Below are positions 21,965-28,933 of a DNA stretch of 64,000 nt, one piece after another. Below the pieces are notes generated by a model. That model ran no database searches and was not told the origin of the DNA. It saw only the letters and a list, made by a program, of their open reading frames with translations. The stretch is from a virus. Position numbers and translations under genes: made by a program. The DNA lies in the IMG/VR virus record IMGVR_UViG_3300050120_000121, positions 35,905 through 99,904 of that record; one strand, 5' to 3'. Positions within the stretch are counted from its first letter, which is position 1. Every line of letters starts with the position of its first letter.

Positions 21965-22584
21965 TCAGAATTTTCGGCCGTGCTCTTCCTCATGGCAAGA
22001 CTTGCACATAATCTCCAAGTCGGTTTTTACGTTCTCTTTTCCGAGTCGTTCATACGTCAGGTGATGGCATTGCAGTTTCTTGAATCCGCCGCATCTGTTG
22101 CATTGTTTTCCGTGAATCCCAAACGCTTCGAGTCGCTTAATCTTCCATCTATCGGATCTCATGTATGCAATGTAAAACGGAGAAAAATTCGGTGTCGGTT
22201 GACTCGTTTTTCCGCCAGCACGTTGCTTCGAGCCGTTGCATTGTCGGTCCCGCTTCGCTTGCCTCCGCTGAAAACGATCTTGGATTTTGCATCCCCACAG
22301 CAGCAATTTCTCTCCCGAAAGACCCTTCGGCGGTTTGTATTTCTGTCCGTCAATTACGACAAAATCAGGAGTTCCAATTTCTGGTATGCATAGGCGAGAC
22401 TTTCGAAATGCGAGCTTGTCCTGTTGTTTCTGAATCTTCCTTTGCTGTTTTCGAGAGACAAAGGCTGGCTCTGGAGGCAGGAGTATCGGGGATTGCTCCG
22501 CTCGTTTAAATCGAGCATTATTCGCGGCAATCTTTTCCGCTGAGAAGTGCTTGACGATGGAGTATGGTTCCAATCGCCTTGAAC
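21965..22584 (-). pseudogene. HNH endonuclease, 3' part of a gene split by the IS4-type transposon
   Basis: The C-terminus is a complete HNH module (W..KRLEAFG, CNRCGG, LQCHHLTYERLG, DLEIMCKSCHEEEH). The 5' end is cut at 22584 by the transposon; the open frame beyond it is transposon sequence. Joining 28195-28138 to 22584-21965 restores one frame of 225 codons plus stop. The nuclease domain itself is intact, so a truncated protein could still be made from an internal start. Confidence 0.85.
22574..22584. repeat. 11-bp target site duplication, left copy
   Basis: TCGCCTTGAAC abuts the left inverted repeat. The identical 11 bases abut the right inverted repeat at 28127-28137. Duplications of 10-13 bp are characteristic of IS4-family insertion. 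Confidence 0.92.
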
Positions 22585-22736
22585 GAATGGCACTAGGATA
22601 AGGAAATTCCTCCCCCCTCGCCAATCCCGCGGCCGACATTCCTGCCCGCGGATCGACCCCCTACTCTTCAGCCTCACTCCCAATTGGTGGCGAACGTGAA
22701 ATCCGCGGGATACGATCAAATGGAACGTCTCAAACG

Positions 22737-24485
22737 ATGAGCCACCATTCTCGTTCCATCGGATGCCTGATGCCCACCCATCTCGTCAACCTCGATGCGC
22801 TCGTGCAACGCCAGGATTTTCGACACGGTTCGGACGAACCACCGCAACGCAACCGATTGAGCAGCGAAATCAAAATCGGGGAACTGGAAAGCAATTTCTT
22901 CCATCTTCTCAAAAAGCCGGATTTCCAACGAACGACGAACAACTGGTCATCCAATCGGATCATGGAATTCGTCAAGAGTTTCGTTGATGGAGATTTGATC
23001 CCATCCATCATCATGTGGTGGTCGCAAGACACAGGAACTGCATTCGTCATCGACGGGGCGCACCGGATGAGTGCTCTCGCGGCATGGGTTCATGATGATT
23101 ACGGAGACGGGGCCATTTCGCGAGCGTTCTGGAAATCGAACATTCCCGCGGCTCAGAAGAAACTCGCCGAAGCAACGAAGTTGCTGATTGATCGGGAGAT
23201 CGGGCAGTATCAGAAGCTGAAGCGTCTTGTTCAGGATAATCCCGCGGGAAGCGACCCTGTCATGCTGGCACGGGCTAAGAATATGGCGACATTCAAGATC
23301 GACCTGCAATGGGTCGAAGGGAGCGCGGAAACCGCGGAGCGATCTTTCTTCCGAATCAATTGCAGTGCCAGCATCATCGACCGCACCGAACTGGAAATCA
23401 TCAAGTCACGTCGGAAGCCAAATGCGATTGCGACCCGAGCATTAATGAATGCAGGCACGGGACACCGCTATTGGTCAGGATTCTCCGATGAAGTTGGCGA
23501 CGAGATTGAAAAACTGTCGAAGGAAATCGCGGTCAGCCTGTTCCAGCCGATCTTGGAAACGCCCGTAAAGACAATGGATTTGCCCATCGCGGGACAAGGG
23601 TATTCATCGAGTGCGTTCCAAGTCGTTTTCGATCTGGTGAATCAAGTCAATGGGGTCGCATCGTCGAAGCGAGCCCCGCGGATGCCGAAGGAAAGGAAAG
23701 TCGATCATTCAGTCGTTGCAGAGGATTCGGAGGAAGACGAAGTTCCCGCGGATGAGATCGCCGCGGACAATAGTCTTCCCGACGACAAGGACGGCAAGCA
23801 AACAATCGCCTATCTGAATGCCGTCAAGCGTGCCGCCCTATTGGTGTCGGGAAGCAAGGGTGGATCTCTCGGGCTTCATCCGGTGGTATATTACTACGGA
23901 AAGACTGGGCGATTCCAATCATCCGCATTGCTGTCGACGATCAAGTTTGTGGAGGAACTGAAAAAGGAAAACCGCCTCGCTGAATTTACGCAGCATCGCA
24001 ATGATTTCGAGGAATACCTCGTTCATCACCGCCATTTCGTGAACAGTCTCGTTCACACGTATGGAAGCCGATACCGGTCGGTCGACGCATTGGTGACGAT
24101 GTACCGAATCATTCTCGCCCAAGTGATGGAAGGAAACGTGGATCACGACAAGATCACGCAAAAGCTGATCGGCGATTCGGCGCTGAGTTCATTAAGAGCG
24201 GCCATCGTTCCGAAGAAATCCCGCGGGAACAAGGAAAGTTCAAAACTCTCCGCCGCGGATCGGAGTGCCGCATTTCTCGCGACGGCAATCAATGGTGCCC
24301 CGCGGTGTTCAATTTGCAAAGCACGACTGCATTTGAGGGGTGTCAGCATCGACCACGAAAAGCGCAGGCAAGACGGCGGCACGAACGATGTCAGCAATTT
24401 GAATCCGACGCATGCCTACTGCAATTCTGGATTCAAGGAAAAGAAACACCGCGAAACGAAGAAAAAAGCCGCGGACAAGTCGTAA
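22737..24485 (+). CDS. DUF262-like protein with C-terminal HNH nuclease, transposon cargo; candidate DNA-targeting defence protein
   Basis: The 582 residues (571 from an alternative ATG at 22770) begin with a DUF262/ParB-like region: PDFQRTTNNWSSNRIMEFV, LIPSIIMWW and VIDGAHRMSALAAW, equivalent to the DGQQR motif. A charged hinge (EDSEEDEVPADE) follows, then a C-terminal HNH (CSICKARLHL, VSIDHEKRRQDGG, NLNPTHAYCN). DUF262 proteins with nuclease partners form GmrSD/BrxU-type type IV restriction enzymes. Here one chain holds both parts. The gene is dense in CCGCGG sites, unlike the phage. A defence role is an inference. Confidence 0.75.
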   Translation: MSHHSRSIGCLMPTHLVNLDALVQRQDFRHGSDEPPQRNRLSSEIKIGELESNFFHLLKKPDFQRTTNNWSSNRIMEFVKSFVDGDLIPSIIMWWSQDTGTAFVIDGAHRMSALAAWVHDDYGDGAISRAFWKSNIPAAQKKLAEATKLLIDREIGQYQKLKRLVQDNPAGSDPVMLARAKNMATFKIDLQWVEGSAETAERSFFRINCSASIIDRTELEIIKSRRKPNAIATRALMNAGTGHRYWSGFSDEVGDEIEKLSKEIAVSLFQPILETPVKTMDLPIAGQGYSSSAFQVVFDLVNQVNGVASSKRAPRMPKERKVDHSVVAEDSEEDEVPADEIAADNSLPDDKDGKQTIAYLNAVKRAALLVSGSKGGSLGLHPVVYYYGKTGRFQSSALLSTIKFVEELKKENRLAEFTQHRNDFEEYLVHHRHFVNSLVHTYGSRYRSVDALVTMYRIILAQVMEGNVDHDKITQKLIGDSALSSLRAAIVPKKSRGNKESSKLSAADRSAAFLATAINGAPRCSICKARLHLRGVSIDHEKRRQDGGTNDVSNLNPTHAYCNSGFKEKKHRETKKKAADKS

Positions 24486-24511
24486 TGGCTTTATCTATAA
24501 ACAGTACCCGT

Positions 24512-24985
24512 TCAACACGTCCTGCGGCAATTCTGTTTCGGCATCCCATCAGTCTCCAATTTACAAACAGGCTTTCCAGCAGACGGCGGAGCATCCTTCG
24601 CCATCTTGAGTATCTTTTCGACTTCCTTCCGCTCTATGTCGCTCAGATCATTGACAAGGAATCTCGGTGCGGGATGCGTGTAGAATCGTTTGGCGAGAAC
24701 TGGAGCCAAATGTCGGAAGTCCTGTCCCTCAGAGTCCCAAAGAATAAAGCGATCGAACATCACGACAGGGCCACAAATTCCGACATTCTTTACGTGTGGA
24801 CCGATTCCAATCCAAGTCAATTTGTTTGCAATTCCCGTCAGAACCGGTTCTCGACTATCTCCTCCGATTCCAATTACTGCTTCAAAAAGAATGCTGCGCA
24901 CTTGTCCCATGCAATCACGCAGACCGAAGCGCCCCTGTTTGTCTGGGTCGCCGGTGTGTGTTCGCTTATAGATGAGCGTTCGCAT
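24512..24985 (-). CDS. Transposon cargo protein of unknown function
   Basis: 157 residues from the ATG at 24985, with AAAGGCGG before it. The N-terminus (RTLIYKRTHTGDPDKQGRFG) and FEAVIGIGGDSREP look like a conserved family I have seen only as hypothetical. The general style recalls nucleotide-modification-associated domains, but I cannot confirm this. It converges on the DUF262-HNH gene with 26 bases between the stops. Confidence 0.6.
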   Translation of the reverse strand: MRTLIYKRTHTGDPDKQGRFGLRDCMGQVRSILFEAVIGIGGDSREPVLTGIANKLTWIGIGPHVKNVGICGPVVMFDRFILWDSEGQDFRHLAPVLAKRFYTHPAPRFLVNDLSDIERKEVEKILKMAKDAPPSAGKPVCKLETDGMPKQNCRRTC

Positions 24986-25019
24986 TCGTTCCGCCTTTAT
25001 TCGCCGACAATTTAACACG

Positions 25020-25096
25020 GCGAAACGCGCCACGTTTCGCGGCATGCGGATTCTACCAGAAGCCGACCATCGTTCGCGATGCGTCGGCTTTTTTCG
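25020..25096 (+). terminator. Two consecutive hairpins, the second a strong intrinsic terminator
   Basis: GCGAAACG pairs with CGTTTCGC at 25020-25040. Then AAGCCGAC-CATCG pairs with CGATGCGTCGGCTT at 25060-25088 with one bulge and runs into TTTTTT. The T-run is on the plus strand, so it stops rightward transcription entering from the cargo gene side. No confident gene lies between 24,986 and 25,526. Confidence 0.7.
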
Positions 25097-25526
25097 TTTG
25101 CGGATCATTCACACAGATATTTGAGTGCTCATCAATTCGTCCATAATTCCTGAATATCCACGTCTCTAATTGACCAAGAGACCGTTTTTTCGCATGCAAT
25201 TGCGATAACCATCGCTCATTGAAATTATTTCGCTCCTCTTCCGAGGTTCGTACACTCTCCACATCACTGGTGAAATACCGTCAACATCCTTGTGCGGTGA
25301 TCGTCCGCCAATTCGCATCGGATAATTATTTTTCGCTCGCTGGATGCTTCTCTGTACTCTGATGGAATGCGGCCATCATCTGGTCGCGGCGTTTTTCGTT
25401 TATTTCGATCACCTTTCATGTTGTCGGAAGAGGACCAATGTCAGAAAATTTTTGCAGTCGCAGCGATTCTTCCGAAAATTCCGCTTCCCTCGCGAAACTT
25501 GCAGTGGTAAAAGATGAGTCGCAAGA

Positions 25527-25556
25527 ACGTGAAATGTATTTCACGTCAGGCATAAT
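25527..25556 (+). promoter_or_regulatory. Operator palindrome and -10-like box before the small cargo gene
   Basis: ACGTGAAAT-GT-ATTTCACGT is a perfect 9-bp palindrome at 25527-25546. A -10-like CATAAT lies at 25551-25556, so the palindrome covers where a -35 element would be. A dimeric repressor could block this promoter; the adjacent ribbon-helix-helix protein or the gene product itself are candidates. Confidence 0.55.
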
Positions 25557-25583
25557 GTGACAGGATTGAACGGAGGGAAACCA

Positions 25584-25982
25584 ATGGCCGACGACGACAT
25601 GATGGCCAAAATCATCGACAAGCGTGCGAAACTGGTGGAACATATCGAGAAGATGCAGCTCAGATTATCCGTCTATGACGAACTGCTGGCGGAAAGCGGG
25701 GAAGATCTGAATTCAGGCGGAAATCCGGCCGCCAGCACGGAAAAGAAAATCGGCCCTACAGAACACGTCCTGAAACTGTTGGGCGAACACCCAGATGGAA
25801 TGACTCTAACAGAGATCATCGACGCGCCAGCGACTCGTGTTGAGAGCGAGTCCAAAGATCCGAAGGCCAATATCCGCAGCACGGTGACATACATGCTCCG
25901 AGCCGAGAGGCTGCAAAAGAACACGACAACCGACAAAATCACGATCAAGCCAAAAACCGTGAAACCGCCCAGTGAAGCGTGA
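25584..25982 (+). CDS. Small cargo protein with coiled coil and winged-helix-like C-terminus
   Basis: 132 residues from the ATG at 25584, which follows GGAGGG; a GTG at 25557 is less likely. The N-terminal helix (DKRAKLVEHIEKMQLRL) is followed by a C-terminal part (TEHVLKLLGEHPDGMTLTEI ... TVTYMLRAERLQKN) that resembles a winged helix. A DNA-binding regulator is plausible. Confidence 0.6.
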   Translation: MADDDMMAKIIDKRAKLVEHIEKMQLRLSVYDELLAESGEDLNSGGNPAASTEKKIGPTEHVLKLLGEHPDGMTLTEIIDAPATRVESESKDPKANIRSTVTYMLRAERLQKNTTTDKITIKPKTVKPPSEA

Positions 25983-26028
25983 TGATCCGAATCTTGACAC
26001 GAACATGAACGCGAGGTGCATGATGGAC

Positions 26029-26067
26029 AAAAAATAAAACCCCAAGTCGCAAGGTGCGATCAAGGGG
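26029..26067 (-). terminator. Minus-strand intrinsic terminator
   Basis: On the minus strand CCCC...GGGG flanks an inner TCGCA/TGCGA stem and is followed by TTTTATTTTTTG. It should end transcription from the ribbon-helix-helix gene at 26508-26296. The stretch 26068-26295 holds no convincing gene. Confidence 0.65.
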
Positions 26068-26295
26068 CTCCGATCGAAAGTCCCATTTTGATTCCACTCG
26101 GACCAACATGCTTTTGGGAAAGGGCAGGTCTGAGCGGGTCTAGCTAGGCACCCACGATGTCTGCGGTAATTCGCGGCTTTGCACCGTCGTTTTGGTTTTT
26201 CCTCAGTCGAAGGCAATATCGGTCTCAGACCGGTCAAGGATGCACGCAATTGTGATGTATCGTAGCTTTTCACTGGACCGAAATCCAGAACGTTT

Positions 26296-26508
26296 TTAGT
26301 CAGGGATGGCTTTGGTCGCTGATGCCTTTTTCTTTTCTTTCTTCGCGGCTTGCTTTAGGCGGTCGCGAATCCATTTGGAAAGATCGAGCCCAGCGATCTT
26401 GGCCGCATCCTCAAATTCCTGACGCTCTGACGTATCGACCCGAACTATGACATGGGCGTCTTTACGCTCGTCATCGTCTTTCGCCGGTCTTCCACGTGAT
26501 TTCGCCAT
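26296..26508 (-). CDS. Ribbon-helix-helix-like regulator, transposon cargo
   Basis: 70 residues: a basic N-terminal arm (MAKSRGRPAKDDDERK), then AHVIVRVDTSERQEFEDAAK and LDLSKWIRDRLKQAAK, matching the strand-helix-helix layout of MetJ/Arc antitoxin-type proteins, then a Lys-rich tail. It may control cargo or transposase expression. Confidence 0.65.
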   Translation of the reverse strand: MAKSRGRPAKDDDERKDAHVIVRVDTSERQEFEDAAKIAGLDLSKWIRDRLKQAAKKEKKKASATKAIPD

Positions 26509-26732
26509 GCTCGCATTGTAATCCGAAAAATCATTTCGTCAACAGATGTTTCCGATTGACTTCGGTGATTAAACGGATTACAATTAATCCCGTTGGAACG
26601 CCAATTCCGACATAAGAAAAACCCCGCTTCGACGCCAATCGAAACGGGGTTCCAGATCAAACCGGCGAACCGGAATGCCCTGTAAGCAATCGCATTCTAT
26701 GGATTCGCCCAAGTCAAGAAAAGGACGAATCC

Positions 26733-28118
26733 ATGCCGCGAAAAGACTTCAAGGCTGTGCGTGACACTTTTGCGAACGATAGCGGACTTCCGTTCGGCCG
26801 CATTCTCACCCGCGATCATGTCGTGGGCGTGCTCGAATCCGAAGGACACAAATACCGTCAGCGAGTGTTCTGCCCGTTGGTCACGCTTTGGGCGTGGCTA
26901 AGCCAATCTCTCAGTCAGGACAAATCATTGAATGAGGCGGTCAGTCGCATTCTGGCACATCGCGTTGCAACCGGATTGCCAGCATGCTCAGCCTCGTCGT
27001 CAAGTTACACTGACGCCCGCATTCGATTTCCGCTGCCAGTGTTGATTCGACTTGCAAAAGAGATCGGGCGAAAGGTTCACAACTCTGCCGACGAGGCATG
27101 GCATTGGCGCGGACGAGAAGTGTTCCTTGCCGATGGCACCACTCTTTCGATGCCTGACACTGAGAAAAACCAGTTGAAGTACCCTCAAGTCAAAACTGTC
27201 GCCGCGGGACTTGGGTTTCCGATTATGCGGTCGGTTGCATTAATCTCCTTGTCGACGGGTGCTGTCATGGATTTTTCATGTGGTCCATTCGAAGGGAAAG
27301 GCACGGGTGAGGGTGCTCTGTTGCGACAGACGCTCGATACGATGAATCGCGGTGATATTCTTGTCGCAGATCGGTATTACCCAAGCTATCGCACGTTGTC
27401 CGCCTTACTGCCCCGCGGAATCGACCTCGTGTCGATCAGTAACGCGTCACGAATCGTCGACTTCACGGAAGGATTTCAACTGGGCGACAACGATCACATC
27501 GTAACGTGGTATAAGCCGACGCGACCCGCGGGGATCGGCGACGAAGAATTCGCGGCGTTTCCAGACACGATCTGCGTCCGGGAGTTTCTTATAGATGTCG
27601 AGTCTCGCGACGGAGGGACCGAACAGGCAATCGTTGTCAGTACGTTGACCGATCCAACAATTCCGCAGGAAGAGATTTCGAATCTGTACTGGAAACGATG
27701 GAATTGTGAACTGGACTTGAGGTCAATCAAATCCAGCATGCATATGGATATTCTCCGCGGGAAAACGCCAGAAATGGTGCAAAAGGAAATCTATGCCCAC
27801 TTGTTGGCTTACAATCTGATCCGCGGGACGATGACGGAATCGGCCAAGAGAACGGGACTCATTCCGCGGCAACTGAGTGTAAAGGGCTGCATGCAAGCCG
27901 TCGAATCATTCACTCCTGCAATGATGGCGACATCCGCGGGAGATGTTCTGTATGATGCCCTGCTGACGACCGTTTCGGCTCATCGCGTGGGAAATCGGCC
28001 GGGACGATTGGAACCGCGGGTTAAGAAACGTCGTGATCCGTGGGCGAAATCGAAGATGAAAAAACCCCGAAACGAGTACCGGAGACGTTTGGCGAAAGAC
28101 GCGAAAACCTTATCCTAG
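26733..28118 (+). CDS. IS4-family transposase
   Basis: A 461-residue DDE transposase. Catalytic motifs are LADGTTL (first Asp), ILVADRYYPSY (second Asp) and the YWKRWNCELDLRSIK segment with the Y..RW..E signature of IS4 proteins. The C-terminus is Arg/Lys-rich. The gene ends inside the right terminal inverted repeat. Frequent CCGCGG words link it to the DUF262-HNH gene at the other end. It appears intact, so the element may still be mobile. Confidence 0.92.
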   Translation: MPRKDFKAVRDTFANDSGLPFGRILTRDHVVGVLESEGHKYRQRVFCPLVTLWAWLSQSLSQDKSLNEAVSRILAHRVATGLPACSASSSSYTDARIRFPLPVLIRLAKEIGRKVHNSADEAWHWRGREVFLADGTTLSMPDTEKNQLKYPQVKTVAAGLGFPIMRSVALISLSTGAVMDFSCGPFEGKGTGEGALLRQTLDTMNRGDILVADRYYPSYRTLSALLPRGIDLVSISNASRIVDFTEGFQLGDNDHIVTWYKPTRPAGIGDEEFAAFPDTICVREFLIDVESRDGGTEQAIVVSTLTDPTIPQEEISNLYWKRWNCELDLRSIKSSMHMDILRGKTPEMVQKEIYAHLLAYNLIRGTMTESAKRTGLIPRQLSVKGCMQAVESFTPAMMATSAGDVLYDALLTTVSAHRVGNRPGRLEPRVKKRRDPWAKSKMKKPRNEYRRRLAKDAKTLS

Positions 28119-28126
28119 TGCCATTC

Positions 28127-28195
28127 TCGCCTTGAACCGACGAGTTTTGGAGTTCGAAGAAATCTCTCTAGTCGACTTGATGATTGCGGTTCCAT
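28127..28195 (-). pseudogene. 5' part of the HNH gene split by the IS4-type transposon, with the right target duplication
   Basis: ATG 28195 opens a frame (MEPQSSSRLERFLRTPKLVG) that runs to the target duplication at 28137-28127. It continues in phase with the fragment ending at 21965 once the transposon and one duplication copy are removed. It was the first gene of the minus-strand operon, so the insertion separates the operon from its promoter side. Confidence 0.8.
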
Positions 28196-28300: not shown

Positions 28301-28489
28301 TCACAACTCGACGACGCGGCTTTGCAGAGGCTCCGCAGGCTCCAGAGGGGTTGGGTTTTGATTACATGATTCCTCCCAGAATGAAAACCGCCGTTTTATC
28401 TGAACCGGCGAAACCGATGATGGATACCCATTGTCGCAGGATGTGGCGATTATCCGCCGAGTCTGATGATTGTCAAACGCAATCCGCAT
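28301..28489 (-). CDS. Doubtful small minus-strand frame
   Basis: A 62-residue frame that a minus-strand terminator follows at a sensible distance. It overlaps the start of the HNH gene on the other strand and lacks a strong ribosome-binding site. I list it because nothing else explains 28,257-28,465. Confidence 0.25.
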   Translation of the reverse strand: MRIAFDNHQTRRIIATSCDNGYPSSVSPVQIKRRFSFWEESCNQNPTPLEPAEPLQSRVVEL

Positions 28490-28933
28490 CACTTCGGATC
28501 ACGAGAAACCGATCCCGTATCGGCAGATTGCCGAAAGTCGCTATATTTCCATCTGAGAAAGACTCTCGCACCACTGGAAAGGATTCCCACATTGTCACGA
28601 AGCGTTTTAAGGGAGGTTGTCCACGATCTATTCCAAGGTCGCTGCTGCTGGTGTGGGAAAAGGGTGTTTCTCAGCAAAGCGACGAAAAAAGGACATCTGC
28701 GACATGACGCATCAACCGTTGACCATGTCGACCAGCGAAACGACGGCAACCGAAAAGCACGTTGCCGAGTTGTGTGCTCATGTCACCAATGCAATCAAAA
28801 GCGAAGTCACGATTCATACTGCTGCCTACTGAAAGTCACTGAGCGACCTGCCGACGTTGTGCCTGACGGAATGCCTGTTTTGTGGGTGGACGAGGCGGAT
28901 GAGTTGATTCTCGATCAGTTTCAGGCGAGATGA
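28466..28933 (+). CDS. HNH endonuclease
   Basis: 155 residues with CCWCGKRVFLSK, then STVDHVDQRNDGNR and VVCSCHQCNQKRS, an HNH core with a four-Cys zinc site. The N-terminus is basic and otherwise unassigned. It lies just before the first copy of the early promoter. Homing or packaging-related nicking are both possible; homing is more likely given six such genes in the window. Confidence 0.75.
   Translation: MIVKRNPHHFGSRETDPVSADCRKSLYFHLRKTLAPLERIPTLSRSVLREVVHDLFQGRCCWCGKRVFLSKATKKGHLRHDASTVDHVDQRNDGNRKARCRVVCSCHQCNQKRSHDSYCCLLKVTERPADVVPDGMPVLWVDEADELILDQFQAR

What the first reader, a model, noticed from the sequence alone, without database searches (positions are those of the whole stretch)
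22574..28195. Cargo-carrying IS4-type transposon, with a DUF262-HNH gene, inserted in a phage HNH gene
A 19-bp perfect inverted repeat, an 11-bp target duplication and exact repair of a 225-codon HNH frame on excision prove the boundaries. The element carries about 4 kb of passengers, including a one-chain DUF262 plus HNH protein that resembles GmrSD/BrxU type IV restriction. A phage or prophage genome hosting a transposon that may carry an anti-phage gene is unusual.
Basis: partly seen in the sequence, partly recalled or inferred. Interest (0 to 1): 0.85.

Follow-up and report, generated by a model that had tools for sequence, protein, structure and literature searches.

The report
Cargo-carrying IS4 transposon in a phage
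A 5.5-kb cut-and-paste transposon of the IS4 family, carrying four passenger genes including a probable anti-phage nuclease, sits in a phage genome; close relatives with the same ends but different cargo lie in planctomycete chromosomes and in a second phage, so it is one member of an apparently undescribed family of gene-ferrying insertion sequences.

Summary
Element 22585-28126 (5542 bp) has perfect 19-bp inverted repeats and an 11-bp target duplication inside a tailed-phage contig (99.9 kb). It belongs to the IS4 family, IS4 subgroup: transposase model above cut-off, complete YREK motif, end consensus and duplication length all fit. It carries four passenger genes between the left end and the transposase, including a one-chain DUF262+HNH protein. 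The four transposases form one fully supported clade; resolved relatives outside it are bare 1.5-1.7 kb ISs. So this is a clade of "transporter" IS4 elements with swappable cargo, parallel to IS231/MIC231 of Bacillus but in another subgroup, phylum and, unusually, in phages. The defence role of the DUF262-HNH gene is inferred (motifs; relatives beside CBASS, EcoRII and in a P2-like prophage slot), not shown. It is not a GmrSD/BrxU member: no DUF1524. The repaired HNH frame is weak evidence. New variant of a known kind.

The parts
22574..22584 (.). target duplication, left copy TCGCCTTGAAC
   Evidence: identical to 28127-28137, abuts the inverted repeat
22585..22603 (+). left terminal inverted repeat GAATGGCACTAGGATAAGG
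   Evidence: 19/19 with right end; fits IS4-subgroup end consensus -AATR--------WTW---- (PMC2266710); identical or 1-mismatch ends in a second phage and in planctomycete genomes
22770..24485 (+). passenger 1: DUF262 (GmrSD_N) + HNH protein, about 571 aa (longest frame starts at 22737; family alignment favours the ATG at 22770)
   Evidence: PF03235 33.6 bits (cut-off 33.2), PF01844 22.9 (21.4); family alignment with conserved FQR, DGxHR, SFFxIN and CxxC..H..GG..N..H.YCN
24512..25108 (-). passenger 2: protein of unknown function, up to 198 aa
   Evidence: no Pfam, NCBIfam or PADLOC match; 39% relative in an unannotated stretch of Cupriavidus necator pHG1
25557..25982 (+). passenger 3: 141-aa protein with weak winged-helix-like matches
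   Evidence: below-cut-off HARE-HTH and IclR hits only
26296..26508 (-). passenger 4: 70-aa ribbon-helix-helix-like DNA-binding protein
   Evidence: NikA-like 25.7 bits, just under cut-off 27
26515..26584 (.). inverted repeat upstream of passenger 4 (arms 26515-26533 and 26566-26584), possible operator
   Evidence: 84% complementary arms, 32-nt spacer; operator role is inference
26620..26652 (+). hairpin directly upstream of the transposase, conserved in the second phage's copy with a compensated stem change
   Evidence: -18.2 kcal/mol, z -2.9; alignment; probable transcription insulator (inference)
26733..28118 (+). IS4-family DDE transposase, 461 aa
   Evidence: NF033592 193.9 bits against cut-off 115, PF01609 66.4 bits; YWKRWNCELDLRSIK = Y-2-R-3-E-6-K; the stop codon lies inside the right inverted repeat
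28108..28126 (-). right terminal inverted repeat
28127..28137 (.). target duplication, right copy
21965..22584 (-). interrupted phage HNH gene, C-terminal about 200 codons (N-terminal about 26 codons at 28138-28195)
   Evidence: PF01844 22.7 bits; joined frame; HNH domain relatives in Streptomyces phages

Best explanation
A transporter insertion sequence: an autonomous IS4-subgroup element whose inverted repeats have come to bracket a block of passenger genes between the left end and the transposase. The transposase recognises the 19-bp ends, cuts the whole 5.5-kb unit out and inserts it with an 11-bp duplication (shown: ends, duplication, intact selected transposase, filled sites elsewhere; inferred: activity and the cut-and-paste chemistry, from the IS4 family). 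The same ends circulate in planctomycete chromosomes with different passengers, and as a 488-bp cassette without transposase that would have to be moved in trans, so cargo is exchangeable. This copy jumped from a planctomycete (inferred host) into a phage, which can carry it between cells. Its main cargo is a single-chain nuclease, DUF262 plus HNH, that most likely works as a stand-alone restriction enzyme: the ParB/Srx-like DUF262 domain binds nucleotide and senses foreign or modified DNA, and the HNH domain cuts (all of this inferred from motifs and neighbourhoods). In the phage this could act as superinfection exclusion, or be a passive stowaway. I put the element's identity at about 0.97 and the defence role of the cargo at about 0.6.
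For: Ends and duplication. IS4-subgroup end consensus, duplication range and YREK. Two filled chromosomal sites, G416:C233:5069-8883 (3815 bp, 11-bp duplication GCCCATCGGGC) and G409:C88:13830-18109 (4280 bp, 12-bp duplication CCATACCGATAC), transposase 81% identical, cargo not homologous to the window's. Second phage G001 with two identical 19-bp ends and an 82% transposase fragment. 488-bp transposase-less cassette G469:C273:7691-8178 with 11-bp duplication. One 100/100 clade for the four transposases; resolved relatives outside it are bare 1.52-1.73 kb. dN 0.15 with saturated dS: the transposase lineage is under selection. DUF262-HNH: all motifs conserved across the family; relatives beside CBASS, beside EcoRII/Vsr in phage KL3, in the same portal-adjacent slot of another P2-like prophage (L064); closest relatives (52-53% over the N-terminal half) are solitary genes in planctomycete chromosomes.
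Against: No transposition or restriction has been measured. The G001 copy has no target duplication and a truncated transposase, so it is rearranged and its cargo limits are unsure. The DUF262-HNH model is of modest quality (mean pLDDT 62.7) and finds no significant PDB match. Among the full-length mobile-element relatives whose surroundings could be read (KL3, L064, Pf8, B. glumae, Pantoea, Enterobacter), only KL3 and B. glumae sit next to recognised defence genes, and KL3 and L064 share a phage slot. Whether the phage expresses the cargo is unknown.
Confidence: 0.8

Rival explanations
1. The element is a genuine transporter IS, but the DUF262-HNH gene and the other passengers are accidental hitch-hikers with no benefit to phage or host; the cargo turns over neutrally.
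For: Cargo differs completely among family members; most passengers have no recognisable family; a phage gene was hit rather than a neutral spot.
Against: The DUF262-HNH reading frame is intact with every family-invariant residue kept, which a neutral passenger would lose; its family recurs in phages, plasmids and defence loci.
Confidence: 0.3
2. The DUF262-HNH protein is a nuclease serving the mobile element itself (homing-like spread or destruction of competing elements) rather than a restriction enzyme.
For: It sits on many mobile elements: prophages, an inovirus, plasmids; the invaded gene is itself an HNH nuclease gene.
Against: Relatives are also solitary chromosomal genes with no transposon ends nearby; DUF262 is the sensor/NTPase domain of known defence enzymes (PMC10952713).
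Confidence: 0.12
3. Two independent IS ends, or an assembly chimera, happen to bracket phage genes; there is no single 5.5-kb mobile unit.
For: The middle segment (24501-26608) differs in CCGCGG content from the two ends; the second phage's ends have no duplication.
Against: The perfect 11-bp duplication abuts both outer ends; chromosomal relatives of 3.8 and 4.3 kb show the same architecture with their own duplications.
Confidence: 0.02

Closest known systems
IS4 family, IS4 subgroup (De Palmenaer et al. 2008, PMC2266710)
   Same: Transposase family model, full YREK motif, end consensus, 10-13 bp duplication
   Different: Listed size range for the subgroup is 1400-1650 bp; this element is 5542 bp because of passengers
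IS231 elements with passengers and MIC231 cassettes of the Bacillus cereus group (PMC2266710; PMC3913671)
   Same: Passenger genes between left end and transposase; family also contains a transposase-less cassette with the same ends
   Different: Different IS4 subgroup (ends GAATGG, not CAT), different phylum; two relatives carry passengers on both sides of the transposase; found in phages
GmrSD / BrxU / SspE / GrwA modification-dependent nucleases (PMC10952713, PMC12137116)
   Same: Single chain, N-terminal DUF262 with QR, DGxxR and FxxxN motifs, C-terminal His-Me (HNH-type) nuclease
   Different: DGAHR instead of DGQQR; nuclease is PF01844 HNH with CxxC/C zinc ligands, not DUF1524; target unknown
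IS4 (InsG) in Escherichia virus Lambda_4B5 and phage PhiR70_1
   Same: IS4-family element in a phage record
   Different: Only about 24-25% identical transposase, annotated as E. coli IS4; the only two related hits in 50,697 annotated phage records

Membership tests
IS4 family, IS4 subgroup | DDE transposase with Y-(2)-R-(3)-E-(6)-K | tested here: met
   NF033592 193.9 bits, cut-off 115; YWKRWNCELDLRSIK in the translation; alignment
IS4 family, IS4 subgroup | ends fit -AATR--------WTW---- | tested here: met
   GAATGGCACTAGGATAAGG has AATG at 2-5 and ATA at 14-16
IS4 family, IS4 subgroup | target duplication of 10-13 bp | tested here: met
   11 bp here; 11 and 12 bp in chromosomal relatives; 10 and 11 bp in bare viral relatives
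IS4 family, IS4 subgroup | cut-and-paste transposition | not testable with these tools
   needs an excision/integration assay
Transporter IS / mobile insertion cassette type (as IS231-MIC231) | passenger genes inside the inverted repeats of a transposase-bearing IS | tested here: met
   four passengers, 22770-26508; chromosomal relatives with other passengers
Transporter IS / mobile insertion cassette type (as IS231-MIC231) | transposase-less cassette with the same ends and target duplication | tested here: met
   G469:C273:7691-8178, 488 bp, flanks show the 11-bp repeat CCCTGAAGGGG
IS231 subgroup | CAT ends | tested here: not met
   ends are GAATGG
GmrSD-type type IV restriction enzymes | DUF262 domain with QR, DGQQR and FxxxN motifs | tested here: met
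   PF03235 above cut-off; FQR, DGAHR (variant), FFRIN
GmrSD-type type IV restriction enzymes | DUF1524 nuclease domain | tested here: not met
   Pfam finds PF01844 HNH, no DUF1524; no GmrSD-type PDB chain matched by sequence
GmrSD-type type IV restriction enzymes | cleavage of modified DNA | not testable with these tools
   needs biochemistry

The most novel reading that the evidence does not exclude
A clade of IS4 elements in Planctomycetota works as a general gene-ferrying system with exchangeable cargo and trans-mobilised cassettes, and phages serve as its intercellular vectors, so that a transposon rather than the phage genome itself brings anti-phage genes into phage genomes and on to new hosts.
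Probability: 0.3. Interest if true: 0.75.

Novelty: new variant of a known kind. Interest (0 to 1): 0.55.

Why it matters
Passenger genes in IS4-family elements were described for the IS231 subgroup only in the family's 2008 survey. Here a second, unrelated subgroup does the same in Planctomycetota, with exchangeable cargo, a transposase-less cassette and, unusually, residence in phages. It offers a concrete route by which a restriction-like gene can hop between bacterial chromosomes and phage genomes, and gives ready material (defined ends, intact transposase, several natural cargoes) for testing it. The DUF262-HNH family is a testable candidate for a defence enzyme related to, but distinct from, GmrSD.

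Tried and rejected
Transposase as query in IMG/VR: nothing; with a family profile, three further relatives plus the second-phage copy: two are bare ISs of 1524 and 1603 bp, in the third the ends could not be resolved. Joined HNH protein in IMG/VR: no relatives; in annotated phages only the HNH domain, so the proposed test of the repaired frame against intact homologues could not be done. PDB sequence searches for transposase and DUF262-HNH: no informative match. AlphaFold model from four sequences was weak and its fold search insignificant; DndI, a phosphorothioation-sensing antiphage protein, is the top hit at E = 1.4, which I do not count. Search for a genome with the element's CCGCGG density: none in 392 planctomycetes by TCCCGCGGGA; the most CCGCGG-biased genome found, G419, is only about 2- to 2.5-fold over expectation in the stretches read, so the donor host is not identified. 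Insertion into hairpins: three chromosomal members of the family sit in hairpins (0.25-5% of background), the window site does not clearly (20%); post hoc, not claimed. Unknown passenger 24512-25108: no viral relatives.
Full report
WHAT IS THERE. The element occupies 22585-28126 (5542 bp). Its ends are perfect 19-bp inverted repeats, GAATGGCACTAGGATAAGG, and it is flanked by an exact 11-bp duplication, TCGCCTTGAAC. The record is a 99,904-bp viral contig with a large terminase (phrog_979, 438 bits), major head protein, DnaB-type helicase and DnaD-like loader, so the carrier is a tailed phage. There is a single copy in the record. In order the element holds: left repeat; a DUF262+HNH gene; an unknown minus-strand gene; a small plus-strand gene with weak winged-helix matches; a ribbon-helix-helix-like gene; a hairpin; the transposase; the right repeat, inside which the transposase stop codon lies.

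WHAT FAMILY. The transposase passes NCBI's IS4-family model (193.9 bits against a cut-off of 115) and contains YWKRWNCELDLRSIK, the complete Y-2-R-3-E-6-K motif. In the survey of the family (PMC2266710, read) the IS4 subgroup has ends -AATR--------WTW---- and duplications of 10-13 bp; the window's ends (AATG; ATA at 14-16) and 11-bp duplication fit, while the IS231 subgroup's CAT ends do not. Relatives at 40-44% identity in planctomycete genomes whose ends could be resolved are bare ISs of about 1.52-1.73 kb with ends beginning GAATGGCAC or nearly so and, where found, duplications of 8-11 bp. Two relatives in other viral contigs are also bare, 1524 bp with a 10-bp and 1603 bp with an 11-bp duplication.

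FILLED SITES ELSEWHERE. The exact 19-bp end occurs twice in one other viral contig (IMGVR_UViG_3300037083_000054, G001, 122,834 bp), in inverted orientation 8946 bp apart, with a transposase fragment 82% identical over residues 1-178 between them, but without a target duplication. That copy is decayed or rearranged. Sampling planctomycete genomes then found two full-length transposases at 81%. G416:C233:5069-8883 (3815 bp) has repeats matching over 25 bases and an 11-bp duplication; G409:C88:13830-18109 (4280 bp) has a 12-bp duplication. Both carry small passenger genes on both sides of the transposase, none related to the window's cargo; G416 and G001 share a 148-bp stretch downstream of the transposase. 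Six of 170 genomes of that order carry such ends. In one of them the ends bracket only 488 bp with an 11-bp duplication and no transposase (G469:C273:7691-8178), the arrangement known as a mobile insertion cassette. The window, G001, G416 and G409 transposases form a clade with full support, apart from the other relatives. Between window and G416, dN is 0.15 and dS above 3: the transposase has been kept functional over a long separation. About 124 bp upstream of the transposase, including a hairpin whose stem changes are compensated in the G001 copy, is conserved too.

THE DUF262-HNH CARGO. Both domains pass their Pfam cut-offs narrowly. An alignment of six relatives keeps FQR, DGxHR, SFFxIN in the DUF262 part and a CxxC...H...GG...N...H-YCN HNH. 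Relatives of full length are few: 6 plasmid records, 4 phage records representing 2 phages, and three other viral contigs. Their neighbours include a CBASS operon on a Burkholderia glumae plasmid, EcoRII methylase, Vsr and EcoRII endonuclease in phage KL3, and the portal-side slot of another P2-like prophage (L064; portal and terminase confirmed). The Pf8 inovirus carries one under the label 'putative repressor'. A more distant, partly aligned Acinetobacter relative lies near WYL and DUF1819 genes, which from general knowledge are BREX-associated. The closest relatives found are solitary chromosomal genes in planctomycetes, 52-53% over the N-terminal half. A single-gene, DNA-sensing nuclease is the simplest reading. 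It is not a GmrSD member because DUF1524 is absent, and what it recognises is unknown.

HOST AND HISTORY. The planctomycete link rests on the near-identical ends and 81% transposases in planctomycete chromosomes and on the closest DUF262-HNH genes; no CRISPR or other direct host evidence was available. The G416 and G409 copies have none. This suggests that the ends of the element lived for long in a genome rich in this palindrome, and that the middle segment came from elsewhere. No sampled genome matches that density, so this stays an unexplained clue.

LIMITS. The repaired HNH frame adds little: only about 26 codons lie beyond the insertion, and homologues do not cover them. Transposition and restriction are inferred. 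The literature search was limited to open full text; no planctomycete passenger-carrying IS4 element was found in it, but absence there is not proof of novelty.

Noticed in passing
window 22627-24469 and 27202-28014: 21 copies of CCGCGG in the element (O/E about 20 and 15 in two blocks, P 4e-13 and 1e-7), none in the 2.1 kb between, and depletion in the surrounding phage; looks like a highly iterated palindrome acquired in an unidentified host.
   Followed up: partly
L009 8619-9125 (G001:C1:48619-49125): A gene with the superinfection-immunity domain PF14373 (52.6 bits) lies between the two identical 19-bp ends in the second phage; whether it is transposon cargo is unclear because that copy is rearranged.
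   Followed up: partly
L009 9221-10951, L010 9270-10577, L011 4138-5463 (all G001): The second phage carries at least two further transposase genes outside the element (phrog transposase hits) besides a SWIM/DDE transposase between the two ends; an unusual load for a phage.
   Followed up: no
L087 5069-8883 flanks, L088 7830-12109 flanks, L103 7691-8178 flanks: Three chromosomal members of the family are inserted inside short hairpins (stem scores in the top 0.25-5% of local background); a possible target preference.
   Followed up: partly
window 28466-28933: Phage gene just right of the element with a weak match to the PADLOC model NsnC (E 0.008) and an HNH-like CxxC...DH motif.
   Followed up: no
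NC_073756.1, QII09_gp01 (L030 8523-10061): Pseudomonas phage Pf8 'putative repressor C protein' is a full-length DUF262-HNH relative (37%), so that annotation is probably wrong.
   Followed up: partly
L087 5309-5578 (-), L088 11513-11878 (+): By eye, related short passenger proteins near one end of both chromosomal elements, each next to another small gene; possibly a toxin-antitoxin-like pair.
   Followed up: no
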